NCBI GenBank assembly: GCA_022600695.1
Contig: JAHZJY010000172.1
Location: 1-25,470 of the forward strand
Length of the DNA stretch: 25,470 bases
DNA from: Actinomycetes bacterium
GTDB taxonomy: Bacteria > Actinomycetota > Actinomycetes > Mycobacteriales > Mycobacteriaceae
Direction: 5' to 3'
Part shown: positions 5,901 to 16,730 of the stretch, one piece after another
How the letters are laid out: every line of letters starts with the position of its first letter
How positions within the stretch are numbered: position 1 is the first letter of the stretch
The notes under the pieces: model-generated
The model's input: only the letters and a program-made list of their open reading frames with translations
Told to the model about the DNA's origin: nothing
The model's database searches: none
Program-made: the position numbers and the translations under genes

Positions 5901-7019
5901 ATGCGAACACCCACCCCGATCCGGGCAATGGCCGTGCTGTGCGCGGCGGTCGTGCTCGCAACCGGGTGCGCACGGTTCGACAACGCGGTGTCCCAGCCGT
6001 TCACCACGCCGCCGAAAATGGTGCCCGGCCCGCCGTCGACCCCGCCTCCTCCGCCACCCCTGCCACCCAAGCCGTTCCCGAAGGTCTGTCCGGCTCCCGG
6101 TGTGATGCAGGGCTGCCTGGAGAGCACCAGTGGCCTGATCATGGGATCGGATGCCAAGACCGCCTTGGTCGCCGAGCGAACCACCGGCGCGGTCAAGGAG
6201 GTCGCGATCGACGCCGAACCGACGGTTCGGATGGTCATCCCGGTCGACGGGAGCGGTGACGGCGGCCTGATGTCGATCGTCAAATCGCCGACCTACAGCC
6301 AGGATCGGCTGATGTACGCCTATATCAGCACTCCCACCGACAATCGGGTGATCCGAATCGCCGACAACGACGTGCCCAAAGATCTGTTGACCGGTATCCC
6401 CAAGGGGGCGACGGGCAACACCGGATCGCTGATCTTCACCAGTCCGACCACATTGGTGGTTCAGACAGGCGACGCCGGCAGTCCGGAACTGGCCAATGAT
6501 CCGAAATCGCTGGCCGGCAAGGTCATCCGGATCGAACAGCCGACCACCGTGGACCAGGCCCCTCCGACCACCGCCTTGAGCGGGATGGGAGTCGGCGGCG
6601 GCATGTGCCTCGACCCGGCCGACAAGTCGCTCTACATCACCGACCGCACCCCGGCCGGTGACCGGTTGCAGCGTATCGGCCCGGATTCGAAAGCCACCAC
6701 GGTATGGACCTGGCCGGATCGGCCGGGAGTGGCCGGGTGCGTGGCGCTGGACGGCACCGTGCTGGTCAACCTGATCAACACCAAAGAGACAGTGGCGCTG
6801 CAGCTGGCCCAGGCCACCGGTGCGGTCACAGACGACCCGGAAGTGGTGAGGGAAGGCAAACACGGGCACGCGTGGGCGCTGGCCGTGGCTCCGGACGGAA
6901 ATATCTGGGGAGCGACGGTCAACCGCACGGCCGGCGATGCAGAGAAGCTCGACGACGTGGTCTTCCCGCTGTTCCCGCAGGGCGGCGGTTTCCCGCGGGC
7001 CAACGCCGAAATCACCTAG
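5901..7019 (+). CDS. lppZ: lipoprotein LppZ, sugar-dehydrogenase-like beta-propeller
   Basis: The protein has 372 residues with a lipoprotein signal: MRTPTPIRAMAVLCAAVVLA followed by TGC, so Cys23 should be lipidated and the protein held on the outer face of the membrane. A Pro-rich linker (residues about 45-60) follows, then a propeller domain of the glucose/sorbosone dehydrogenase type, with segments such as GLIMGSDAKTALVAERTTG, DGGLMSIVKSPTYSQ and GNTGSLIFTSPTTLVVQTGD. It matches M. tuberculosis LppZ (Rv3006, about 373 residues). The enzyme activity is not established. ATG 5901 is chosen over 5796 because the signal peptide starts there. Its TAG overlaps the stop of the convergent hydrogenase-cluster gene at a shared CTAG. 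Confidence 0.93.
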   Translation: MRTPTPIRAMAVLCAAVVLATGCARFDNAVSQPFTTPPKMVPGPPSTPPPPPPLPPKPFPKVCPAPGVMQGCLESTSGLIMGSDAKTALVAERTTGAVKEVAIDAEPTVRMVIPVDGSGDGGLMSIVKSPTYSQDRLMYAYISTPTDNRVIRIADNDVPKDLLTGIPKGATGNTGSLIFTSPTTLVVQTGDAGSPELANDPKSLAGKVIRIEQPTTVDQAPPTTALSGMGVGGGMCLDPADKSLYITDRTPAGDRLQRIGPDSKATTVWTWPDRPGVAGCVALDGTVLVNLINTKETVALQLAQATGAVTDDPEVVREGKHGHAWALAVAPDGNIWGATVNRTAGDAEKLDDVVFPLFPQGGGFPRANAEIT

Positions 7020-7852
7020 CGACTGTTCAGCAGCAGCCCCGGGTCAAACGTTGCGCGGGCGGCGACGGAGGCCACGGCGGCGGAGACCACCAGCGCACCG
7101 TCCCCCTCGTAACCCTTGGGAAAGACGATCTCCGCATTGTCGGGCCCGTCCCGATGGGCCATCAGCCAGTCATAGAGCAGCCAGTCCACCGCGCACGCGA
7201 GCGCAAGAGGGTCGGCCTCCGGTGACCGCGACGCCGCGACCACCGACTGCAGTGCATCGCGGTGTTCTTTGCGCGCGGCCTCCTTGTTCGTCCCGGAACT
7301 GTCGAAGAACACCATCGACAAGGTCAGCGGAAAACGTTGCCCAACTTCGGTTCGCAGCACCCAGCGGCCTCCCCGCCAGGGTTGTTGCGGGTCGACCTGC
7401 TGCATCTCCCCGAACCCACCGACGACTCCCGGTGATGGCTCATCGAGTTCGCCGTCGAACGGGGCGGGCCCCAGCAGACCCAGCGGCTGACGTGCCCGGA
7501 TCGAGAAAAGCGCCGCGGTACCGACGATCTTGCCGGCTCGAAGGTCGGCGCCCAGCCCGGCTACCTCCAGGCCCGCCGCGTAGTCGAAGCACAGCCGGTC
7601 CAGCGTGCGGTGCAACTCCAGCAGATCATCCCGTTCACCGTCGGCGGCCGGCCCCCGGCCGCCGCCGAGGATCTCACCGAAGCGCCCGGCGGCGATGATC
7701 AGGGCATCGTCAAGTGCCTCCAAGTGGGTGGCGAGCAGACGGTCCGGCTCGTCATCCTCGGCGATCAAGGCCTGCAAGGTGGTCGGGACGCCGGCGGGGG
7801 TGGCCCAGAAAAAGCCGATCTGATCCTGCCCCTGCACGATCCGCGGCCTCAT
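7016..7852 (-). CDS. hydrogenase-cluster protein of unknown function
   Basis: I do not recognise this 278-residue protein. It is soluble-looking and acidic, with no signal peptide or membrane helix. The N-terminus (IGFFWATPAGVPTTLQALIAEDDEP) and the middle (GGRWVLRTEVGQRFPLTLSMVFFDSSGTN) look like mixed alpha/beta structure. A run EALDDALIIAAGRFGEILGGGRGP precedes a helical region with LDRLCFDYAAGLEVAGLGADL. Its ATG overlaps the stop of the NHL-repeat gene (ATGA), so it is almost certainly the last gene of the hydrogenase operon. A role in assembly, regulation or electron transfer of that enzyme is inferred from position only. Its stop shares CTAG with lppZ. Confidence 0.8.
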   Translation of the reverse strand: MRPRIVQGQDQIGFFWATPAGVPTTLQALIAEDDEPDRLLATHLEALDDALIIAAGRFGEILGGGRGPAADGERDDLLELHRTLDRLCFDYAAGLEVAGLGADLRAGKIVGTAALFSIRARQPLGLLGPAPFDGELDEPSPGVVGGFGEMQQVDPQQPWRGGRWVLRTEVGQRFPLTLSMVFFDSSGTNKEAARKEHRDALQSVVAASRSPEADPLALACAVDWLLYDWLMAHRDGPDNAEIVFPKGYEGDGALVVSAAVASVAARATFDPGLLLNSR

Positions 7853-9048
7853 ACCGACCGCCGCCAGAGCATCACCCGATTATTGCCCGAGTCGGCGACT
7901 GCCAACCGATCGCCCCGCAGCGAAAGACCGTACGGCCAGCACAGCGTGTCGTGTTGCACCGAGGTCCAGCGGTTCTCGCCGTTGGAGCCGAAATCCGGCT
8001 GCGCGAGTACATAGTCGGCGCCCCGGCAGGGCGCGCCGCCCGGTGTACCGTCCCAGATCAAAACCCGGTTGTTGGCGGTGTCGGCGATGGCCAGCCGCTC
8101 GGTGCCGTGATGGGAGTCGAGACTGGCGGCGTAGGGGAATCGAAACCGGTCTGAGGTGTGTGGCCCGTACGGCCACTCCTCGGCGCTGCTGAAATCCGGC
8201 TGTCCGAGCAGCAGGTGGGCATCGGTGTCGCCGGCCGGCTGCGGTGACCATCCAAGAACACGGTGATCGCCTGCATCGGCGACCAGCAGCAGGTCCCCCC
8301 GGCCGGTGATGTCGTGCGGCCACCGGAAACTCGCCGGGCCGGCAGGCCCGCCCCGGTTCTCCTCGCGCGATTCCCCGTCCGGCTGGCCCAGGATGATGTC
8401 GGCGGGTTGATCGGATCCGGGAATACCGTTGCGCCAGCCGAGGACCCGACGATTTCCGGTATCCGCGACCCAGAAGGCGTCACCGACCATGGCGATCCCG
8501 AACGGCCAGTAGAAGCTTGTGGGCGAACAGTCCCCGCCCCGGTTCACCTCCACCGAACTCGGACCCGACTGGCCTATCACCACATCGGGTGGCACGTCAT
8601 CGGACTCCGGCACGGTGTTCCACACCAGGATCCGGTGATGCCAGGCGTCGGCGACGACGAGCCGGTCTTCATGGATCAGCACTCCGGTGGGCAGGTACAT
8701 CCCTTGTTCGGGGCCGCGACCGCCGGCGGCGGGGCCCTCGGACTGACCGTCCGGCTGTCCCAGCACGACATCAGCAGGCTGCTCGTCGCGCTCCGGCAGG
8801 CCGTGCCAGATCAGCACGCGGTGGTTGCCGGAGTCGGCCGCCACCAGGTGATCGGCCCCGAGGAAGACCCCGCGTGGGGAGTACATCCACGCCATCGAGG
8901 GTTGCGCGGCTGGCAGCGCCAGTCCGCCCGGGGCGGGCGCGCCGAGCCAAGTTTCGCCGACCCATCCGCCGGACAGATCGACCGACGGCGCGACATCACG
9001 GCGGCGCCCAAGCCCACTCACATTGTGTCGGACGGTGTATCGGCTCAC
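7849..9048 (-). CDS. NHL-repeat six-bladed propeller protein of the hydrogenase cluster
   Basis: The protein has 399 residues with six NHL repeats. The hallmark AD-x(3-4)-R-V-L-x-W strands occur at about residues 71, 133, 195, 257, 322 and 385, a spacing of about 62. Most blades are followed by an ADVVLGQPDG-type loop (LGQPD or close variants at about 96, 158, 220, 281 and 348). This should fold as a closed six-bladed propeller. There is no signal peptide, so it is probably cytosolic. NHL proteins are recurrent neighbours of group 1h hydrogenase genes in actinobacteria, but their role is not settled; scaffolding is plausible. GTG at 9046-9048 is preferred because it overlaps the upstream TGA (GTGA). 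Confidence 0.88.
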   Translation of the reverse strand: MSRYTVRHNVSGLGRRRDVAPSVDLSGGWVGETWLGAPAPGGLALPAAQPSMAWMYSPRGVFLGADHLVAADSGNHRVLIWHGLPERDEQPADVVLGQPDGQSEGPAAGGRGPEQGMYLPTGVLIHEDRLVVADAWHHRILVWNTVPESDDVPPDVVIGQSGPSSVEVNRGGDCSPTSFYWPFGIAMVGDAFWVADTGNRRVLGWRNGIPGSDQPADIILGQPDGESREENRGGPAGPASFRWPHDITGRGDLLLVADAGDHRVLGWSPQPAGDTDAHLLLGQPDFSSAEEWPYGPHTSDRFRFPYAASLDSHHGTERLAIADTANNRVLIWDGTPGGAPCRGADYVLAQPDFGSNGENRWTSVQHDTLCWPYGLSLRGDRLAVADSGNNRVMLWRRSV

Positions 9049-9935
9049 CCGACGCGCACCCAAACCTCGCCATCGTCAACCCGCAACGGCAGCGCCTCGA
9101 GTTGGGCGCCGGGCGCGCTGAGACATTCCCCCGAACCGGCATCGAAGCAGAACCCGTGCCAAGGACAGGTCAGCGTGCCGTTGGCGACGTCGAGCACCGC
9201 GTTGTCAAGCGGCAGTGCTTCGTGGGCGCACTCGTTGCGGTAGGCCGAGAGTCGCTTTCCGACGTTGACGACGATCACCCCGATGGCCTCTCCCGCCACG
9301 GTGCTCGCCGTCGTGGGCGACAGGTCGTCGACCGGGAACTCCGCAGCCGAACCCAGCTTGGCCCAGCCCTCGGTGGACGGGGCGCCACCGCCTATCCGCA
9401 GGGATTCCACCGGGATCAGGGTGGGTGTCGGCTCGTTCGCCACCACCTCAACGGCATTGATCGCCGGAACATGCTGCACCAGAGCCTCTTCCACCAAGTT
9501 ACGCAGCGTTACCGAGGACATCGAGCAGCCGTTGCAGGCACCCTCCAACCGAACGAACGCGGTGCCGTCCTCCACCCGGACCAGCGCCACGTCGCCGCCG
9601 TGGCTGTGCAACTGCGGACGCACGGAGTCCAGAACCTGCCCGGCATGGGTGATCGGGTCGGGCCGGATGATGCCGTGCAGTGAGAGCAACAGACGCACTG
9701 CCGGGTCGTCGACGAGGTCAAACAGGACCGTTCGGGCGCCGTCGTCCGCCCGCATGGCCTGCACAATGGTCACCAGACCGGCCCGGTGAACGGCCTCGAC
9801 CGCCGCCTTCAGTTCCTCCGCCACCGCGCGAGCGGTAGGGTCGAGTTCGTCGAGAGCAGCCATCGCGTCATCGACCCGCTTGGCCAGCTCTTCGAAAGTC
9901 TCTTCGGCCGAGACTTTTTCAGATGTTTCAGTCAT
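9045..9935 (-). CDS. NifU-like/Rieske iron-sulfur fusion protein (HhyE-type)
   Basis: This 296-residue protein carries two iron-sulfur modules. Residues about 100-165 form a NifU C-terminal (Nfu) domain with GACNGCSMSS supplying C134 and C137. Residues about 188-296 form a Rieske domain with CAH (C236, H238) and CPWH (C257, H260), the four ligands of a [2Fe-2S] cluster. The first about 90 residues are helical and have no recognised domain. As I recall, related proteins in M. smegmatis (HucE/HhyE) have been linked to H2 uptake. The likely job is to carry electrons from the hydrogenase towards the quinone pool, or to help cluster assembly. Its ATG overlaps the TPR gene stop (ATGA). Confidence 0.9.
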   Translation of the reverse strand: MTETSEKVSAEETFEELAKRVDDAMAALDELDPTARAVAEELKAAVEAVHRAGLVTIVQAMRADDGARTVLFDLVDDPAVRLLLSLHGIIRPDPITHAGQVLDSVRPQLHSHGGDVALVRVEDGTAFVRLEGACNGCSMSSVTLRNLVEEALVQHVPAINAVEVVANEPTPTLIPVESLRIGGGAPSTEGWAKLGSAAEFPVDDLSPTTASTVAGEAIGVIVVNVGKRLSAYRNECAHEALPLDNAVLDVANGTLTCPWHGFCFDAGSGECLSAPGAQLEALPLRVDDGEVWVRVG

Positions 9936-11191
9936 CCTGCATCCTCTGTCGCGTCAGTACGGCTCAATGCCCCTTGCCGGGCGATTTCGTCGAGCACCCC
10001 TCGAACCGTCCGGACGGAATCGTGGTCGCCGAGTTCCTCGAACAGGAACCTCGCCTCATACAGTTTGGCTTTCGCCTGATCGAAGTCGCCGAGATGGGCG
10101 AGGACGTTGCCCTGGTTGGCCAGCACCCGGGCACGGCCCAGCGGATCGGTATCGCGATCCCGCGCCGCCAATACCGCCTCATACAGTTCAACCGCCTCCA
10201 CCAGATTGTCGGCCTGGTGACTCGACGGGGTGTAGACCAGCGAGTTGGCGAGATTGAGCTGCACGCTCGCCCACTGTTCCGGATAGTCCTCGGGGGTGTA
10301 CACCTTCAGCGCGGAGCGCAGCGACTGGGCGGCCACCCCCAGCCGCAACTGACTCGAGGCCTCGGTCATCGGCATAGTGAGGTAAGCGGTGGCGAGATTC
10401 GCGTGGGCGGAGGCCCACAGCAGCGGCGCCTCATCCCGCAGCACCAGCTGCAGCGCCGAATGGTAGTGCGGCACAGCCCGAACCAGCAGATCCAGCCGAT
10501 CTCCGGCCTGTTCGTGAAGTAACCCGGCCAGTGTCAGGTGCAGTTCCGCGCGGGCCAAGCGCAGGCCCTCTGAACCCTCCAGCGCCCGCAGCGCGCGTTC
10601 GAAGCGGGTACCCGCATCGTTGCCGCCGGCATCGGCGGAGATCGACGCCGATGCCCCCAGCAGCACACCGCGTAGCGGTTCGGAGACGCCGGCGGCCTGC
10701 TCGGCGGCCCGGTCCAGCGCGTCGATCGCGTCCGCCGCGTCGCCGGCGTCCAGGGCCGCGCCGGCCTGGCTCGAGAGCACCACCGCCGCCAATTCCCCGG
10801 TCGCCCCGGCAGCCTCGGGTGCGGTGTCGGTGCGGCCCAGCGCGAACAGCACCACATCCACCAGCACCCCGAATTCCCCTAGCAGTGGGCGTAGTTCGTC
10901 TGGATCCTCGGCGTCCGGATCCATCACGAAACGGTTGTACCGGCTGACCGGGTCGGATCCGGTCAGCTCCGCCAGAGCGCCGTCACGGTCACCGGCAAGG
11001 GCCAGCTGATGCACCCGCAGGGCAGCCGGCCAGTCCGGAGTCTGCCCGGCCAGCAGTGCCAGCCTCGCCGCCTCCGTGTCCGGCGAGGCGGGAACCAGCA
11101 GGTAGCCCACCGGCAGCGGGAAGGCGCCCAGCGGTTGCGGACGGACCGCGAGAACGGCCGGATCCATCAGGTCGGTCACAACACTCCTCAT
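9932..11191 (-). CDS. TPR-repeat protein of the hydrogenase cluster
   Basis: The protein is up to 419 residues and strongly helical. The C-terminal 200 residues contain TPR-like units, for example LLWASAHANLATAYLTMPM, QWASVQLNLANSLVYTPS and GRARVLANQGNVLAHLGDFDQAKAKLYEA. The N-terminal about 100 residues are not recognised. It probably acts as a protein-binding scaffold or chaperone for the hydrogenase or its iron-sulfur partner; this is inferred from fold and neighbours. The start is uncertain: ATG at 11191 has no ribosome site, while GTG at 11177-11179 follows AGGAG by only 4 bases. A tandem 18-bp repeat lies immediately upstream. Confidence 0.85.
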   Translation of the reverse strand: MRSVVTDLMDPAVLAVRPQPLGAFPLPVGYLLVPASPDTEAARLALLAGQTPDWPAALRVHQLALAGDRDGALAELTGSDPVSRYNRFVMDPDAEDPDELRPLLGEFGVLVDVVLFALGRTDTAPEAAGATGELAAVVLSSQAGAALDAGDAADAIDALDRAAEQAAGVSEPLRGVLLGASASISADAGGNDAGTRFERALRALEGSEGLRLARAELHLTLAGLLHEQAGDRLDLLVRAVPHYHSALQLVLRDEAPLLWASAHANLATAYLTMPMTEASSQLRLGVAAQSLRSALKVYTPEDYPEQWASVQLNLANSLVYTPSSHQADNLVEAVELYEAVLAARDRDTDPLGRARVLANQGNVLAHLGDFDQAKAKLYEARFLFEELGDHDSVRTVRGVLDEIARQGALSRTDATEDAG

Positions 11192-11192
11192 A

Positions 11193-11247
11193 GTTTCATC
11201 CTGGGAAGGGGTTTCATCCTGGGAAGGGGTTTCATCCCTGGGTGGGT
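11193..11247. repeat. 18-bp tandem repeat before the TPR gene
   Basis: Two perfect copies of gtttcatcctgggaaggg lie at 11193-11210 and 11211-11228, followed by a degenerate third copy to about 11247. Read on the minus strand each unit contains an ATG, and the array forms a 15-codon frame (MKPLPR twice, then MKL) whose TGA overlaps the first possible ATG of the TPR gene. It fills most of the 63-base gap between the small unknown gene and the TPR gene. Confidence 0.9.
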
Positions 11248-11254
11248 TGGTGTC

Positions 11255-11506
11255 TCATCCAAAACGAGGTCCGCGGATGTTGCGCTCGGCGGCGCGCCTG
11301 ATCAGGCCGGCCGAGATCTCGGCCCGCACCTTCGTGGCATGGGTATCGATGCGTTTGCGGACCACCCCGTCGGCGAACACCACCACGATTTCCACCGCCC
11401 ACCGCCCACGGTCGGCTACCACCACGGTCTGCACGTCGATCGCCTCGTCGGCGGAACTGTCCCGGCGCACCGCGGTCCGAGGCTGCTGATCATCGAATCT
11501 GGTCAT
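11255..11506 (-). CDS. small conserved-looking protein of the hydrogenase cluster
   Basis: This is an 83-residue protein (87 if ATG 11518 is used) that I do not recognise. It has a charged N-terminus (MTRFDDQQPRTAVRRDS), two likely strands (DVQTVVVADRGRWAVEIVVVFADG) and a basic C-terminal helix (KVRAEISAGLIRRAAERNIRGPRFG). There is no cysteine, so it is not an iron-sulfur protein, and no signal or membrane segment. It lies 12-24 bases after the maturation protease gene on the same strand, so it should be co-transcribed with the hydrogenase. A HypC- or HupF-like chaperone role is not supported, because the N-terminal Cys of those proteins is absent. Confidence 0.7.
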   Translation of the reverse strand: MTRFDDQQPRTAVRRDSSADEAIDVQTVVVADRGRWAVEIVVVFADGVVRKRIDTHATKVRAEISAGLIRRAAERNIRGPRFG

Positions 11507-11530
11507 CGAACCCCGCATGAAACACCGCGA

Positions 11531-12391
11531 TCACGAATCCAGCGGGATCCGCAGCACCTTGTGCTCATCATCCCAGAATGCCGGACGAATACCGGAGCGG
11601 AACCGGTCGCCGAGAACTTCCCGGACCAGCGCCGCCCGGTCCCCGGCCGGGTTGCGCTGTTTCAGCAGCAGCCCTCCGCTACTCGGCCCGCGCAGCGGGA
11701 ACAACCACAGCTGACCGTCACGGAGGACCGCCGCCAGGGCATCGGAGGGGAATCGGGTTGCGGCCAACGCGGCGTCCACCCGCAGATAACCGTTGTCGGT
11801 GATCTCCACGGATACCTCATCCTGCAACTGCGGCCTAAGCGGTGCCAGGTAGTCCCGCTCGATCAGCTCGATCACCTGTTCCATGGCGGTCCGGACCGGC
11901 TCGGACAGCTCGGCACCCAACTCAACCGAGGCCGCTTCGATGAGGAACACGGTGATATCGGTGGGGCAGGCCTCGCCCAATGCCCACCGGGCAAAGGCGA
12001 TTGCGTGGTCCCACCGGAACGAGTGGGTGTGCAGGCCCTCCAGCGGAGGCAGTTCACCGAGCTCTTCTCCCGGGACCCGATAGACCGTGCCCGGGGCGGC
12101 ACCGGCGTCCCCCTGGGTCAGACAGGCGTCGACGATCACCACCCGCTGGGCGCCGCGCATCTGAAACGCCACATCCATGCCGGCCGTGCCGCCGTCGACC
12201 AGCCGGCCTCCCTGCGGCACGCCGCGGTCCCACAGGTGGCGGATCAGGACCGGGCCGACACCGTCGTCACCACGCAGTAGGTTCCCGCAGCCGACGATCA
12301 ACGCAGCGCAGCCGGGCGGCTCGATATCGACAGCGGCGTCGGTATCGGAACCGCCGGGCTCGCTGCGGGATTCGGGTGCGTCTGAGGTCAC
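11531..12391 (-). CDS. hydrogenase maturation endopeptidase with extra C-terminal domain
   Basis: The protein has 286 residues. Residues about 28-185 match HybD/HupD-type endopeptidases, which remove the C-terminal tail of the large subunit after nickel insertion. The motif GCGNLLRGDDGVG (34-46) carries the first acidic metal ligand (D42/D43). D88 in VVIVDAC is the second, and a His in LHTHS (H121 or H123) the third. The family is usually about 150-165 residues. Here about 95 more residues follow (192-286), with LWLFPLRGPSSGGLLLKQRN and a C-terminal DDEHKVLRIPL; I do not recognise this part. GTG at 12389-12391 overlaps the hhyL TGA (GTGA), so translation is probably coupled to the subunit it processes. 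Confidence 0.9.
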   Translation of the reverse strand: MTSDAPESRSEPGGSDTDAAVDIEPPGCAALIVGCGNLLRGDDGVGPVLIRHLWDRGVPQGGRLVDGGTAGMDVAFQMRGAQRVVIVDACLTQGDAGAAPGTVYRVPGEELGELPPLEGLHTHSFRWDHAIAFARWALGEACPTDITVFLIEAASVELGAELSEPVRTAMEQVIELIERDYLAPLRPQLQDEVSVEITDNGYLRVDAALAATRFPSDALAAVLRDGQLWLFPLRGPSSGGLLLKQRNPAGDRAALVREVLGDRFRSGIRPAFWDDEHKVLRIPLDS

Positions 12392-13995
12392 ACCATGCCG
12401 TTGATGACGAACTTCGACAGCTCCTTGCCGCTCTTCCCGTCGTAGGCGTGCACGGTGCACACCAGGCAGGAGTCGAAGCTGCGCGCCACATGGCCCAGTT
12501 CCACGGGATCCTCCGGGTCCACGATCGGCGATCCGATGAACGCCTTCTCCATCGGGCCCAGAACCTCGTTACCGTCCCGCGGACCGATATTCCATGCGGT
12601 GGGGGTGACCACCTGGTAATTCTTGATCTTGTTGTTCTCGATGACGATCCAGTCCGCCAGCGACCCGCGGGCGGCCTCGGTGGCACCGAACCCCCTACCT
12701 TCGGCGTATTCGGTGGGTTTGGTGTAGAAGCTCTCTTTGAGGTCGAGCTGATCCAGCCACGACCGGACCCACTTGAAGTACTTTGGTGCCTCGTGCAGCC
12801 GGGCGAGCTGACGGGTCAGCACACTCGGACCGACCTTGTTGTAGATGTCCAGGAACAGCGGATCATTGTCCTGGTGCGCAGCGGCGTTAGGCCCGGCCGC
12901 CGCTATCCGGCGGGCAAGCGGACCGGTCTCCAGCGGAAGGTTACCCAGCCCATCGATCTCATAGCGGGGCGACTTGGCCCAGCTGTACTTACCCTGCTTC
13001 TTGGCCGCTTCCGGATCCAGCGGGATGGTCTCCCCCTCGAACGGGTGCAGCGGCCGGCTGCCCTCGTAGAACGCATGGGTGACATCCTCACGAACCCGCG
13101 CCTGGTCGAACTCGTGCCACTGCCCCCCGGCGAAGATGCCGCCGCGGCCGACCAGCGCCTTGTTGCGGCCATCGATGGTCGGGTTCGCGTACATCGCGGG
13201 ATCGAAGTAGGTACCCATGGCGAGGTAGTTGCCGACACCTTTGCCGAACTTGTCCAGCCCGATATCCAACGAGTAGCGGATGAAGAACCCGAGGTCGCTG
13301 TTGTACTGCGACTCGTTCTCGTCGACCCAGGCCAGGACGTCCTCCCAGGTCTTGTTCTCCAGCCAGCGGTCGACACTGCAGCCGAGCAGCTTGGACTCGA
13401 GCCAATTGTCCTTCCAGTTCTCCAGGATCGCGATCGCGCGGGTGACATCGGTCAGGGTCGCCGCACCCATCACGCCGCCGGGCACCATGAAGCTGGAGTG
13501 TGGCCACTGCCCACCGAAGATCGCATACACCTCGACCGGCTTCTGGGACAGCACCACACCGGGTTGGTAGCTGGTGCCGACGTACGGCGCGAACCGGCGC
13601 ACCGCCTCGTCATACATCGGTGATTTCGCGTAGTTCTTGTTCACCAGGTCGATGGCGAACAGCGCGTAGAAGTAGCGCGGAATCGACTGCAGCGTTTCGC
13701 AGGCCTGGGCGATATTGCGCACCAGCGTGGCGTTGGCCGGCATATGGGTGCGCCAGGCGGTGTCCAGCGCATAGGCCGACTTGTACAGGTGGCTGCCGCC
13801 GCAGATACCGCAGATGCGCGGACAAACGATGAGGCCGGCCTGCGGGTCCTTACCCCGCAGGATGATCTCGAATCCGCGGAACATCGCGGCTTCGGTCCAG
13901 GCCGAGGTGACGACACCGTCCTCAATGGTGACTCGGACGTCGAGGTCGCCCTCGACCCTTCCGAGTGGGCTGACGTGGAGATCGAGCGCGGTCAT
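12388..13995 (-). CDS. hhyL: [NiFe]-hydrogenase large subunit, group 1h type
   Basis: This 535-residue catalytic subunit carries the NiFe(CN)2CO site that splits H2. The four nickel-binding cysteines are in RICGIC (C62, C65) and DSCLVC (C510, C513). The second motif has Ser where most [NiFe] enzymes have Pro (DPCxxC), as in actinobacterial-type group 1h enzymes. H516 marks the expected cleavage point; the 19-residue tail beyond it should be removed by the neighbouring endopeptidase. ATG at 13995 is chosen because AAAGGA lies just upstream and the protein begins at the conserved LHVSPLGRVEGD. The gene starts 44 bases after hhyS. Assignment to 1h rests on motif resemblance and the accessory genes. 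Confidence 0.95.
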   Translation of the reverse strand: MTALDLHVSPLGRVEGDLDVRVTIEDGVVTSAWTEAAMFRGFEIILRGKDPQAGLIVCPRICGICGGSHLYKSAYALDTAWRTHMPANATLVRNIAQACETLQSIPRYFYALFAIDLVNKNYAKSPMYDEAVRRFAPYVGTSYQPGVVLSQKPVEVYAIFGGQWPHSSFMVPGGVMGAATLTDVTRAIAILENWKDNWLESKLLGCSVDRWLENKTWEDVLAWVDENESQYNSDLGFFIRYSLDIGLDKFGKGVGNYLAMGTYFDPAMYANPTIDGRNKALVGRGGIFAGGQWHEFDQARVREDVTHAFYEGSRPLHPFEGETIPLDPEAAKKQGKYSWAKSPRYEIDGLGNLPLETGPLARRIAAAGPNAAAHQDNDPLFLDIYNKVGPSVLTRQLARLHEAPKYFKWVRSWLDQLDLKESFYTKPTEYAEGRGFGATEAARGSLADWIVIENNKIKNYQVVTPTAWNIGPRDGNEVLGPMEKAFIGSPIVDPEDPVELGHVARSFDSCLVCTVHAYDGKSGKELSKFVINGMV

Positions 13996-14039
13996 GGAAG
14001 TCCTTTCAGAGCAATCTCTCAGCGGGGCAGTCAGGATGG

Positions 14040-15011
14040 CTAGACCACGAACATGTCCTCTTTGGACCAGGCCGGTGCGGCCACCCGGGCCGCCGCGGCT
14101 GCGGCCATATAGGACAGCTTCTTGGTGCCGGTCCCGGTTTCCTTCGGGATGACGCCGGCGACCTTCTGGGTCTTGAACACCGTCCCCGGGGCGAGGTCGA
14201 AGTGCGGAAACTCCGGCTCGGTGCAGCCGTAGCAAGGTTGACCTGCCCGCGTCTTCGATGACTGGCGGTTCCACAGGATGCGGTTACACGGCGAGTGGGT
14301 CATCGGCCCGCGGCAGCCGAACTCGTAGAACAGGCAGCCGGTCCGGGTGCCCTCGCCGAAGGACAGCGTCGACTGTTTGTACTCGTAGAACTGGACCCGG
14401 GTGCAGCCGGTCTGGGTGAACGTCTTGAAGAACGTCTCGGGTCGCTGTAGTTCGTCGAGCGCGATATCGCTGGTTCGCCCGGTGGCCAACGCCACGAGGA
14501 TCTGGGTGATCCAGTCAGGGTGAGCGGGGCAGCCCGGGATGTTGATGACGGGCAGGCCGGCCTTGGATCTGAAGTCCGGGCCGAGGAAGCCGCCCTTGGC
14601 GCGCTTGTGGAACTGCAGTCCCGTCGAGCCGGACGGGTTCGGCTCCATCGCCGGGATGCCGCCCCAGCAGGCGCAATCGCCGATCGCGACGACGATCCCG
14701 GCCTGGGATGCCAGTTCGGTCACCCACTCCTTCATCGGCCGGTCGGCGAACATGTCCATCCGGCCGGTCCCGTTCGGCGCCTCGATCACCGAGCCCTCGA
14801 ACACGAACACGTCCATCTGACGGGCGCCGGTGGCGCAGTCGGTGAACAACTTCTGAGCGTGCTTGCCCAGTTCCATTCCGAGGGAGGGGTGCCAGATGAC
14901 GTCGAGGCCGAAGTCCACGATCAGATCGACGACATTGGGCTCATCTGCGTTGAGAAATGACATCGTGTTGCCACTGCACGCCCCTCCCTGGAACCACAGA
15001 ACCGAAGCCAT
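14040..15011 (-). CDS. hhyS: [NiFe]-hydrogenase small subunit, group 1h type
   Basis: This 323-residue electron-transfer subunit relays electrons through iron-sulfur clusters. It has no Tat leader: it starts MASVLWFQGGACSGNT, so the enzyme should stay on the cytoplasmic side. The usual proximal CxxC is reduced to C12 with N15 in the second place. Other candidate proximal ligands are C113 (GDCACWGG) and C161 (IPGCPAHPDW), with an Asp possibly serving as the fourth, as reported for the Ralstonia actinobacterial-type enzyme. The remaining clusters can use C203, C226, C233, C242, C260 and C263. ATG 15011 follows AGAGGAG by 7 bases. It is the first gene of the eight-gene cluster. Confidence 0.95.
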   Translation of the reverse strand: MASVLWFQGGACSGNTMSFLNADEPNVVDLIVDFGLDVIWHPSLGMELGKHAQKLFTDCATGARQMDVFVFEGSVIEAPNGTGRMDMFADRPMKEWVTELASQAGIVVAIGDCACWGGIPAMEPNPSGSTGLQFHKRAKGGFLGPDFRSKAGLPVINIPGCPAHPDWITQILVALATGRTSDIALDELQRPETFFKTFTQTGCTRVQFYEYKQSTLSFGEGTRTGCLFYEFGCRGPMTHSPCNRILWNRQSSKTRAGQPCYGCTEPEFPHFDLAPGTVFKTQKVAGVIPKETGTGTKKLSYMAAAAAARVAAPAWSKEDMFVV

Positions 15012-15218
15012 GGACGAACTCCTCTCACTATCGCCCCGGGGCGACGCCGAGTTCGCGGGACGAAAACAGGGACGCGAAATGCGCGCATTGTCAGCGTCTC
15101 CGACCCTACCGGCGCGACCGCCGATCGGGAACGAATTCCTCAGCCGAAACGCGCCGGAAATATGACGGATTCGACGCGAGGCCGCGGAGCGGCCACCACC
15201 GCGCACTGAGCGCCGGCG
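15012..15218 (-). promoter_or_regulatory. hydrogenase operon control region
   Basis: This 207-base spacer holds no gene. On the minus strand a candidate -10 box TAGGGT lies at 15103-15108, without a good -35 box. Two perfect palindromes lie between it and the hhyS start: AATGCGCGCATT at 15078-15089 and TCGCCCCGGGGCGA at 15031-15044. Either could bind a dimeric regulator. Group 1h hydrogenases are typically induced in stationary phase or carbon limitation, so a repressor or activator site is expected, but I cannot name one. The AGAGGAG ribosome site for hhyS is at 15019-15025. Confidence 0.45.
15180..15194 (-). terminator. GC-rich hairpin downstream of gatB
   Basis: GGCCGC and GCGGCC form a 6-bp stem with a 3-base loop, about 25 bases past the gatB stop codon. 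A 12-bp palindrome AGCGCCGGCGCT spans the stop itself (15209-15220). There is no U-tract. This could help end gatB transcription before the hydrogenase promoter, but GC-rich hairpins are common in this genome type. Confidence 0.3.
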
Positions 15219-16730
15219 CTAACCGTCCTGGCCGCACGCTGCCAGGACGATTTCCCGGACCCGGGCGGCGTCGGCCTGGCCCTTCGTGGCCTTCATCACC
15301 GCGCCCACGATCGCTCCGGCCGCCGCCACCTTGCCACCGCGGATTTTCCCGGCGATATCCGGGCTGGCTGCCAGCGCCTCGTCGACGGCGGCCTGAATCA
15401 GCGAATCGTCGCGCACCAGCGCCAGGCCCCGGTCGGTCATGACCTGCTCGGGCTCACCCTCGCCGGCCAGCACCCCCTCGACGACCTGGCGCGCCAGCTT
15501 ATTGGACAGCGCGCCCTCCTCGACCAGGGTGATGATGGCGGCAACCTGGGCCGGGGTGATCGCCAGCGCGTCAAGCTCAAGTCCGCTTTCATTGGCTTTC
15601 TGCACCAGGAAGTTGCCCCACCAGGCGCGGGCCGCCTCGCTGGATGCCCCATGGCCGACGGTGGCCGCCACCAATTCGACAGCGCCGGCGTTGACCAGGT
15701 CGCGCATCACCTCGTCGGAGACCCCCCACTGCTGCTGAGTTCGCCTGCGCGACAGCCATGGAAGCTCGGGGATCGTGTCACGCAGCCGGGCCACCATCTC
15801 GGCACTCGGGGCGACCGGCTCGAGGTCCGGCTCCGGGAAGTAGCGGTAGTCCTCGGCGGTCTCCTTGTCACGACCCGGTGAGGTGTGGCCGTCCTCGTGA
15901 AAGTGCCGGGTCTCCTGGTGGATCGACCCGCCGGCGGCCAGTATCGCCGCCTGACGACGCATCTCGTAGCGAACCGCGACCTCGACGCTTTTCAGTGAGT
16001 TGACGTTCTTGGTTTCGGTCCGGGTTCCGAACTCGCCACGGCCGATCGGCCGCAGCGACACGTTGGCGTCGCAGCGCAGCGAACCCTGATCCATCCGCAC
16101 ATCCGAAACACCCAAGCCGCGCAACAGGTCCCGCAGTGCGGCGACATAGGCGCGGGCCACCTGCGGCGCGTGCTCCCCGGCACCCTCGACCGGCTTGGTG
16201 ACGATCTCGATCAGCGGGACACCGGCCCGGTTGAAATCCAGCAGCGAGTTGGTGGCACCGTGAATGCGGCCGGTCTCGCTGCCGATATGGGTCAACTTGC
16301 CGGTGTCCTCCTCCATGTGCGCCCGTTCGATATCGATCCGGACGGTGGTGCCGTCCTCCAACGGCACATCGAGGAAGCCGTTGAACGCGATCGGCTCGTC
16401 GTATTGGGAGATCTGGTAGTTCTTCGGCATATCCGGATAGAAGTAGTTCTTCCGGGCGAATCGACTCCAGGGCGCAATCTCGCAGTTCAGCGCCAACCCG
16501 ATCCGAATGGCCGACTCGACGGCGACCGCGTTCAAGGTGGGCAGCGCGCCGGGCAGAGCCAGGCACACCGGGCACACCTGAGTGTTCGGTTCGGCACCGA
16601 AGGTCGTCGCACAGCCGCAGAACATCTTGGTGGCCGTGGACAACTCGACGTGCACTTCCAGGCCGAGTACCGGGTCGAACCGCGCTACGACATCGTCGTA
16701 GTCCATCAGGTCGGCGGTGGTCGTCGTCAT
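15219..16730 (-). CDS. gatB: Asp-tRNA(Asn)/Glu-tRNA(Gln) amidotransferase subunit B
   Basis: GatB recognises misacylated Glu-tRNA(Gln) or Asp-tRNA(Asn) and activates the acyl group with ATP, while GatA supplies ammonia. The protein is 503 residues, the normal size. The opening GLEVHVEL, the zinc-site cysteines in MFCGC and [10 protein letters not shown], and the kinase-like segment [16 protein letters not shown] are all present. The C-terminal about 150 residues form the helical tail and YqeY-like domain, ending [13 protein letters not shown]. The ATG at 16730 is chosen because the conserved N-terminus begins there; the frame is open further upstream but reads through the cutinase gene. It is separated from gatC-gatA by pfkA and the cutinase gene. 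Confidence 0.97.

What the first reader, a model, noticed from the sequence alone, without database searches (positions are those of the whole stretch)
7016..15011. Complete group 1h [NiFe]-hydrogenase cluster inserted into the conserved lppZ-gatB interval
Eight same-strand genes encode both subunits, a maturation protease and five accessory proteins, joined by ATGA/GTGA overlaps. The flanking genes follow the M. tuberculosis order (lppZ ... gatB), where Rv3007c/Rv3008 lie instead, and in M. smegmatis the equivalent enzyme is, as I recall, encoded elsewhere. This suggests lineage-specific gain or relocation of an atmospheric-H2 scavenging system. No integrase, transposase or direct-repeat scar is visible.
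Basis: partly seen in the sequence, partly recalled or inferred. Interest (0 to 1): 0.75.

Follow-up and report, generated by a model that had tools for sequence, protein, structure and literature searches.

The report
Stalkless Huc hydrogenase in small-genome mycobacteria
The gene cluster encodes an enzyme that probably lets a small-genome mycobacterium live on traces of hydrogen gas, but it is the Huc type rather than the type first named, and its lineage has lost the stalk protein thought to link this enzyme to the cell membrane while the part next to the electron-acceptor site was rewritten.

Summary
The eight-gene operon is real, but its enzyme is group 2a Huc, not group 1h Hhy. HucL and HucS match M. 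smegmatis Huc structures over nearly their whole length (1048 and 669 bits); the 1h prototype 5AA5 gives 114 and 115. A mycobacterial 5AA5-type enzyme is 25% identical to HucL. The site is not unique to this species: huc lies between gatB and lppZ in relatives too.

Unexpectedly, hucM, the scaffold and membrane-stalk gene upstream of hucS, is missing. Of 396 sampled genus genomes 103 have Huc and 16 of these lack HucM. Those testable form one clade on Huc, flanking-gene and unlinked RpoB trees. The divergent AraC-family gene is gone from the same 16, and a conserved 29-bp element from their loci. HucS has by far the longest stem branch. Its loop before menaquinone-binding Tyr301 went from KEVPEG-S/T-DHLTY to KE-T/V-GTG-T/A-KKL-S/T-Y, while the quinone-site residues and low dN/dS remain. 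I infer a working stalkless Huc; how it reaches menaquinone is untested.

The parts
14040..15011 (-). hucS, small subunit of group 2a [NiFe]-hydrogenase (323 aa)
   Evidence: 669 bits to M. smegmatis HucS 7uur_D over residues 2-323; Lys212, Tyr229, Tyr301 kept
14118..14138 (-). hucS codons 292-298: clade-specific TGTGTKK loop directly before menaquinone-binding Tyr301
   Evidence: 19 HucM-absent rows from 16 genomes against 28 other rows; new loop in 5 of the 120 listed database clusters, all 89-93% identical to this HucS
12388..13995 (-). hucL, large subunit (535 aa; RICGIC and SFDSCLVCTVH motifs, 19-residue tail after His516)
   Evidence: 1048 bits to 7uus_A over residues 2-516; PF00374
11531..12391 (-). 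hydrogenase maturation protease (HycI/HyaD family)
   Evidence: TIGR00072, PF01750; GTGA overlap with hucL read
11255..11518 (-). small conserved protein (79-87 aa, start codon uncertain)
   Evidence: tblastn matches in most named Huc loci
9932..11179 (-). TPR protein of the operon (start taken as the GTG after an AGGAG; the longest ORF begins at 11191)
   Evidence: PF13424; kept in most named Huc loci
9045..9935 (-). hucE-like NifU-Rieske protein (CAH-x18-CPWH)
   Evidence: PF01106 and PF00355; HucE description in PMC6883350 (passages)
7849..9048 (-). NHL-repeat protein
   Evidence: PF01436; GTGA overlap with the hucE-like gene read
7016..7852 (-). 278-aa protein without a Pfam or NCBIfam match at the thresholds used, end of the operon, overlaps the lppZ stop
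   Evidence: found in many named Huc loci
15012..15218 (-). 207-bp gatB-hucS gap; hucM, the AraC-family gene and the 29-bp element found upstream of hucS in relatives are absent
   Evidence: HucM profile, AraC tblastn, element scan
15219..16700 (-). gatB, flanking gene
   Evidence: NF004013, TIGR00133
5796..7019 (+). lppZ, flanking gene

Best explanation
This is a huc operon (group 2a [NiFe]-hydrogenase) that came into the gatB-lppZ interval in an ancestor shared with the M. rhodesiae/M. litorale group and was inherited vertically. In the branch leading to a clade of mycobacteria with 2.5-5.0 Mb assemblies, hucM and the divergent AraC-family gene upstream of it were lost once; in this species the interval was then trimmed until only the operon remained. 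SHOWN by sequence: Huc identity, absence of hucM and of the AraC gene, one clade on three trees, a long HucS stem branch, and the changed loop beside Tyr301 with the quinone-site residues kept. INFERRED: the enzyme works as HucSL or HucS2L2 without the HucM scaffold; H2 is split in HucL, electrons pass the HucS clusters to menaquinone at the same site, and the acceptor face, now Lys-rich instead of acidic, meets the membrane (or another carrier) directly instead of through the HucM tube. Transcription no longer depends on the AraC gene and its element.
For: Identity. HucM: a profile of 16 orthologues finds 87 of 396 genus genomes, all with HucS; 16 of 103 Huc genomes lack it (G359, whose HucS matches are 38-39% identical, set aside), 8 of the 16 being at least 90% complete. 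No match even at E<=1 in the 12 of 13 named HucM-absent genomes given (L039 not given), while both positive controls rang. The 19-sequence profile still finds HucM in L111 and L112, Acidimicrobiales-type loci. AraC gene: 0 of 16 HucM-absent genomes at E<=1e-60, 13 of 13 HucM-bearing ones chosen. Trees: Huc, 14 HucM-absent rows plus undetermined L042, SH-aLRT 100; GatB+PfkA+LppZ, 14 rows plus two Huc-less genomes, 99; RpoB, 8 of 8 rows, 100/98. HucS: 17 sites fixed differently against 0 in the sister control, 14 of them in HucS (binomial p 2e-4), five within 7 residues (62 of 200,000 random draws as clustered). HucS stem 0.153, longest of 38, next 0.057; with the same genomes, stems are HucS 0.185, HucL 0.085, RpoB 0.044, GatB 0.033. 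dN/dS 0.087 (HucS) and 0.151 (HucL). PMC10017518 passages: the hucM deletion mutant keeps active Huc without the large oligomer.
Against: No activity, structure or membrane data. L110 (Centralia MAG 342) also lacks hucM at its locus (about 0.4 kb between the AraC gene and hucS; only a weak E 0.046 partial hit elsewhere) yet keeps the ancestral loop, so loss of hucM does not force the loop change. Part of the acceleration is general: within the clade RpoB changes 2.5 times, HucL 1.9 times and GatB 1.2 times as much as in the sister rows, HucS 4.3 times. HucL's stem is also its longest branch (0.086 against 0.070) and is 13 times the sister's, HucS 20 times; the protease's is 6 times. M258Q, one of the 14, also occurs in HucM-bearing L084. 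HucM contact residues were not available to me, so the loop's place relative to HucM is inferred from its nearness to Tyr301. All 13 named HucM-absent records are MAGs. In HucM-absent G127 the gatB-lppZ interval (3.4 kb) holds no huc, which lies on another contig.
Confidence: 0.72

Rival explanations
1. Group 1h Hhy cluster newly inserted by gene transfer.
For: The interval is short in some mycobacteria (G077, G054).
Against: Best solved relatives are Huc; the second large subunit of the genome matching M. litorale F4 hits 5AA5 at 1088 bits and is 25% identical to HucL. Huc, flanking-gene and RpoB trees agree, and the interval already holds huc in HucM-bearing relatives.
Confidence: 0.02
2. 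HucM is present but too divergent to detect, or is replaced by an unrelated stalk protein encoded elsewhere, and the enzyme still sits on a membrane tube.
For: HucM-like subunits can diverge greatly: HysM shares 18% identity with HucM (PMC11018855, passages).
Against: The profile detects HucM in distant actinobacterial loci but nothing in 12 of 12 named HucM-absent genomes given at E<=1. No added gene is seen between the operon's genes in the window.
Confidence: 0.15
3. The enzyme has switched acceptor: electrons leave HucS through the NifU-Rieske protein (HucE-like) or another soluble carrier and menaquinone is no longer reduced at HucS.
For: HucE is required for H2 consumption in M. smegmatis (PMC6883350 abstract passage); the HucE-like protein has the second highest within-clade ratio in the operon, 1.89.
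Against: Lys212, Tyr229 and Tyr301 of the quinone site are kept in the rows compared.
Confidence: 0.2
4. The operon is decaying under genome reduction: hucM went first and the HucS changes are relaxation on the way to loss.
For: Two genomes in the clade (G252, 97% complete, and G126, 63%) have no Huc match; HucS dN/dS is 3.6 times that of the sister rows; RpoB is faster too.
Against: dN/dS stays at 0.09-0.15, the changed loop is itself nearly invariant across the clade, and the motifs are intact. In the four HucM-absent genomes checked besides the window's (G209, G210, G382, G127) no other full-length large subunit of the Huc or 5AA5 size was found, only a second type of about 430 aa matched at its ends in three of them, not classified further.
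Confidence: 0.15

Closest known systems
Huc, group 2a [NiFe]-hydrogenase of Mycobacterium smegmatis (7UTD, 7UUS, 7UUR, 8DQV; PMC10017518)
   Same: HucL (residues 2-516) and HucS (2-323) align without gaps; quinone-site Lys212, Tyr229, Tyr301 and HucL His166 kept; NifU-Rieske gene in the operon
   Different: No hucM, AraC gene or 29-bp element upstream; HucS loop 292-298 acidic to basic; gatB directly upstream. Whether M. smegmatis itself has the AraC gene and element was not tested
Huc of the nearest HucM-bearing relatives (M. rhodesiae DSM 44223 L047, M. litorale F4 L044, ENV421 L105)
   Different: Has hucM, AraC gene and element; intervals of 14-69 kb in the nine HucM-bearing genomes with huc inside
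Hhy, group 1h (5AA5 type; L237 in G009)
   Same: [NiFe] large-subunit family PF00374
   Different: 25% identity between large subunits; Rieske domain rather than two C-terminal CxxC motifs in the NifU-like partner
Hys, group 2e with HysM (PMC11018855, passages)
   Same: Another group 2 enzyme, modelled there on a HucM-like tube
   Different: It keeps its stalk subunit; the present clade does not

Membership tests
Group 2a Huc | Large and small subunits closest to M. smegmatis HucL/HucS | tested here: met
   1048 and 669 bits; clade nested among mycobacterial Huc
Group 2a Huc | NiFe-binding motifs and C-terminal extension with a maturation protease | tested here: met
   RICGIC and SFDSCLVCTVH in the sequence, tail after His516; protease TIGR00072
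Group 2a Huc | HucS menaquinone site Lys212, Tyr229, Tyr301 | tested here: met
   residues named in PMC10017518 section 8
Group 2a Huc | HucE with NifU domain and C-terminal Rieske motif | tested here: met
   the sequence shows CAH-x18-CPWH, where the paper prints CxH(x15-18)CxxC
Group 2a Huc | hucM directly upstream of hucS, scaffold and membrane stalk | tested here: not met
   groups are defined by the catalytic subunits (recalled), so I file this as a HucM-less variant of Huc
Group 2a Huc | Oxidises H2 at sub-atmospheric concentration | not testable with these tools
   needs enzyme or cells
Group 1h Hhy | Large subunit closest to 5AA5 HofG type | tested here: not met
   window 114 bits to 5AA5 against 1048 to Huc; positive control L237 1088 bits to 5AA5
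Group 1h Hhy | HhyE with two C-terminal CxxC motifs | tested here: not met
   Rieske domain instead; HhyE described in PMC6883350 (passages)

The most novel reading that the evidence does not exclude
A natural Huc has dispensed with the HucM quinone conduit: its HucS acceptor face was rebuilt (KEVPEGxDHLTY to KExGTGxKKLxY) into a basic membrane-docking patch, so that HucSL lobes take up and reduce membrane menaquinone directly, while transcription was freed from an AraC-type regulator.
Probability: 0.35. Interest if true: 0.78.

Novelty: new variant of a known kind. Interest (0 to 1): 0.62.

Why it matters
HucM is described as the device by which Huc draws menaquinone 94 A from the membrane (PMC10017518). 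A clade in which HucM is gone, HucS is still under purifying selection and the segment beside the quinone site has been rewritten is a natural experiment on whether that stalk is needed, and it gives a seven-residue region to test. Separately, the AraC-family gene and the 29-bp element that vanish with hucM are candidates for the direct huc regulator that PMC13098282 reports as unidentified (passages).

Tried and rejected
Gene transfer of the cluster: not supported, since the Huc tree agrees with the flanking-gene tree and with unlinked RpoB. The GatB, PfkA and LppZ markers lie beside huc, so they alone could not exclude transfer of the whole region; RpoB was added for that (20 of 30 genomes gave a usable locus). 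A site special to this species: rejected. hucM missing because the MAG is incomplete: rejected, since 16 genomes share the absence, 8 of them at least 90% complete, and the place upstream of hucS is sequenced in the window and in 13 named loci. General rate increase as the whole cause: partly true (RpoB 2.5 times within the clade) but HucS has the largest excess and by far the longest stem. AlphaFold2 model of HucS: mean pLDDT 46, not used, and no fold search was made. First RpoB tree: two rows were wrong-frame ORFs (G009, G382), so it was discarded and rebuilt. The lppZ row (dN about 1.0) was dropped as an extraction artefact; NHL and protease were not in that call. HucS residue numbers are one too low, so its printed counts for 212, 229 and 301 concern neighbouring residues; searches give the right ones. 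Literature: the searches listed no paper on a HucM-less Huc or on this small-genome clade; listings show only titles and abstract openings. Read beyond that: passages of PMC10017518 (with its sections 6 and 8), PMC6883350, PMC13098282, PMC11018855 and PMC10792529.
Full report
OBSERVATION. The window is one whole contig (C209) of a 2.82-Mb, 85.8%-complete assembly in the genus that holds Mycobacterium (genus read from the named relatives).

WHICH HYDROGENASE. The closest solved structures are M. smegmatis Huc chains (HucL 1048 bits over residues 2-516, HucS 669 bits over 2-323). The group 1h prototype 5AA5 gives 114 and 115 bits. The NifU-like accessory protein ends in a Rieske domain, which PMC6883350 (passages) gives as the mark of HucE, not HhyE. 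So the operon is huc, group 2a. The genome also has hypB, hypF, hypD and hypE on another contig and a 3b-like sulfhydrogenase; PF00374 found no further large subunit.

LOCATION. In named loci huc sits between gatB and lppZ, same orientation, in several species. From 30 genomes that I chose, mostly near relatives, 18 with gatB, hucS and lppZ located on one contig were compared: huc is inside the interval in 16 (7 HucM-absent, 9 HucM-bearing) and outside in G077 and G054. Against this, G127 has gatB and lppZ 3.4 kb apart on one contig and huc on another. The interval is 8.2 kb in the window and 14-69 kb in the nine HucM-bearing genomes. The Huc tree (window plus the best 80 of 425 named loci), the tree of flanking GatB, PfkA and LppZ (36 genomes, 11 of them under half filled) and the unlinked RpoB tree (20 genomes) all hold the HucM-absent rows together, next to the same relatives. 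I read this as one older relocation, vertical descent and later compaction. The M. tuberculosis gene order is recalled, not tested.

HUCM IS MISSING. In M. smegmatis hucM (MSMEG_2261) lies directly upstream of hucS and makes the scaffold and membrane stalk (PMC10017518). In the window 207 bp separate hucS from gatB. A profile of 19 HucM orthologues found HucM upstream of hucS in 62 of the 80 named loci, plus a fragment in L102 at a contig end; it was absent in 13 named loci, in the window and in L110, and could not be judged in L042, L064 and L113. In 396 genus genomes a profile of 16 orthologues found HucM in 87; HucS matched in 104, of which G359 (38-39% identity) is not counted as Huc; of the remaining 103, 16 lack HucM, and every HucM genome has HucS. 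The 16 are those with HucS at least 89% identical to the window's (G003 and G317 by fragments); no HucM-bearing genome exceeds 88%. Of 13 named HucM-absent genomes, 12 were searched whole at E<=1: 0 with a match; both positive controls rang.

WHAT ELSE WENT. In M. rhodesiae (L047) the order is gatB, 313-aa gene, GAF histidine kinase, AraC-family gene (reverse), hucM, hucS, with matching kinase and AraC positions in L052, L057 and L105. In HucM-absent L038, L040, L051, L072, L073 and L075 the kinase is next to hucS; in the window, L035, L036, L041 and L049 gatB is next. The AraC-family gene matches at 59% identity or more in 56 of 62 HucM-bearing named loci (five more at 34-43%, L111 none) and in 0 of 14 HucM-absent ones, L039 being too short upstream to tell; genome-wide it is in 0 of 16 HucM-absent and 13 of 13 HucM-bearing genomes given. 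A 29-bp element, TGACAG-N4-TGCGCGAA-N-GCGATAGGCA with up to 5 mismatches, lies within 1.2 kb upstream of hucS in 53 of 62 against 0 of 14, in 0 of 1540 shuffles, and once elsewhere in 2.81 Mb counted on both strands. In 6 of 16 distinct HucM-absent genomes (8 of 22 loci, some of them duplicates) a 20-31-codon ORF with its own ribosome site ends just before hucS; that of L038 (MTACAHAVGV) resembles the HucM start (MTANGQAVAV), perhaps a stub.

HUCS CHANGED. Sites at least 95% conserved in 57 HucM-bearing rows and changed in at least 80% of the HucM-absent rows (13, plus undetermined L042 for HucL; L036, identical to L035, left out): 17, of which 14 are in HucS; the sister control of 10 rows gave 0. 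Five lie at 292-298, directly before Tyr301, which hydrogen-bonds menaquinone. The 19 HucM-absent rows shown (16 genomes) read K/R-E-T/V-GTG-T/A-K-K/T-L-S/T-Y (L041 has F for L), net charge of 288-301 +2, once +1; the 28 other rows shown, 27 HucM-bearing and L110, from Mycobacterium to Acidimicrobiales-type loci, are -2. Among the best 120 of 1410 database clusters only 5 have the new loop, all 89-93% identical to this HucS. On a fixed topology of 41 rows (8 HucM-absent) the HucS stem is 0.153, its next longest branch 0.057; HucL's stem is also its longest (0.086, next 0.070); the five other proteins rank 4 to 23 of 38. Within-clade change relative to the sister is 5.4 for HucS and 0.95-1.89 for the other six. 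With RpoB and GatB added on 17 genomes, stems are HucS 0.185, HucL 0.085, RpoB 0.044, GatB 0.033, and within-clade ratios HucS 4.3, RpoB 2.5, HucL 1.9, GatB 1.2; the sister rows were not a clade on that tree. So some acceleration is general and HucS exceeds it, most of all on the stem. dN/dS remains low (HucS 0.087, HucL 0.151; sister 0.024, 0.080).

MECHANISM. The hucM deletion in M. smegmatis leaves active enzyme without the 0.8-0.9-MDa form. I infer that this clade runs such an enzyme as its normal state, with an acceptor face refitted for direct contact with membrane or carrier; a Lys-rich patch would suit lipid head groups, as the Arg/Lys/Trp helix of the HucM stalk is said to do. Against over-reading: L110 lacks hucM at its locus and kept the old loop; interface residues were not available; the AlphaFold model failed.

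VERDICT. Huc chemistry as known, a misnamed subgroup and a site shared by relatives; but a well-supported loss of the stalk subunit with matching change in its partner, which I did not find in print in the searches listed under Tried and rejected.

Noticed in passing
L047:7093-8154 (-) and the region towards hucM; same place in many HucM-bearing loci: AraC-family gene divergent from hucM with a conserved 29-bp element between them; candidate direct regulator and operator of huc.
   Followed up: partly
L110 (Centralia_MAG_342), 7501-8979: Separate absence of hucM, with the AraC gene and a degenerate element kept and the HucS loop unchanged.
   Followed up: partly
G000:C224:259-2309 (L146): Second [NiFe]-hydrogenase, 3b-like alpha and delta subunits by NCBIfam (below the curated cut-offs).
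   Followed up: partly
G000:C348:1524-7481 (L147): hypB, hypF, hypD and hypE genes away from the huc operon.
   Followed up: yes
L049, L051: Records titled Bifidobacterium breve carry huc genes that fall inside the mycobacterial clade, L049 with gatB and lppZ too; the titles look wrong.
   Followed up: no
G252 and G127: G252 (97% complete), inside the clade by flanking genes, has no [NiFe] large subunit match; in G127 the gatB-lppZ interval is 3.4 kb and huc is on another contig.
   Followed up: no
HucM-absent rows of the RpoB tree, e.g. G382, G329, G032: RpoB itself evolves faster in this clade than in its relatives.
   Followed up: no
L047:5882-7090 and homologues: GAF-HisKA_3 histidine kinase near huc in many Mycobacterium loci.
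   Followed up: no
window 11195-11245: Short tandem repeat (CCCCTTCCCAGGATGAAA) between the small gene and the TPR gene, read by eye.
   Followed up: no
P0070: Another HucS, labelled Mycolicibacterium sp., 80% identical, with a different altered loop (PKEVPDGTTRLRY); its hucM status is unknown.
   Followed up: no
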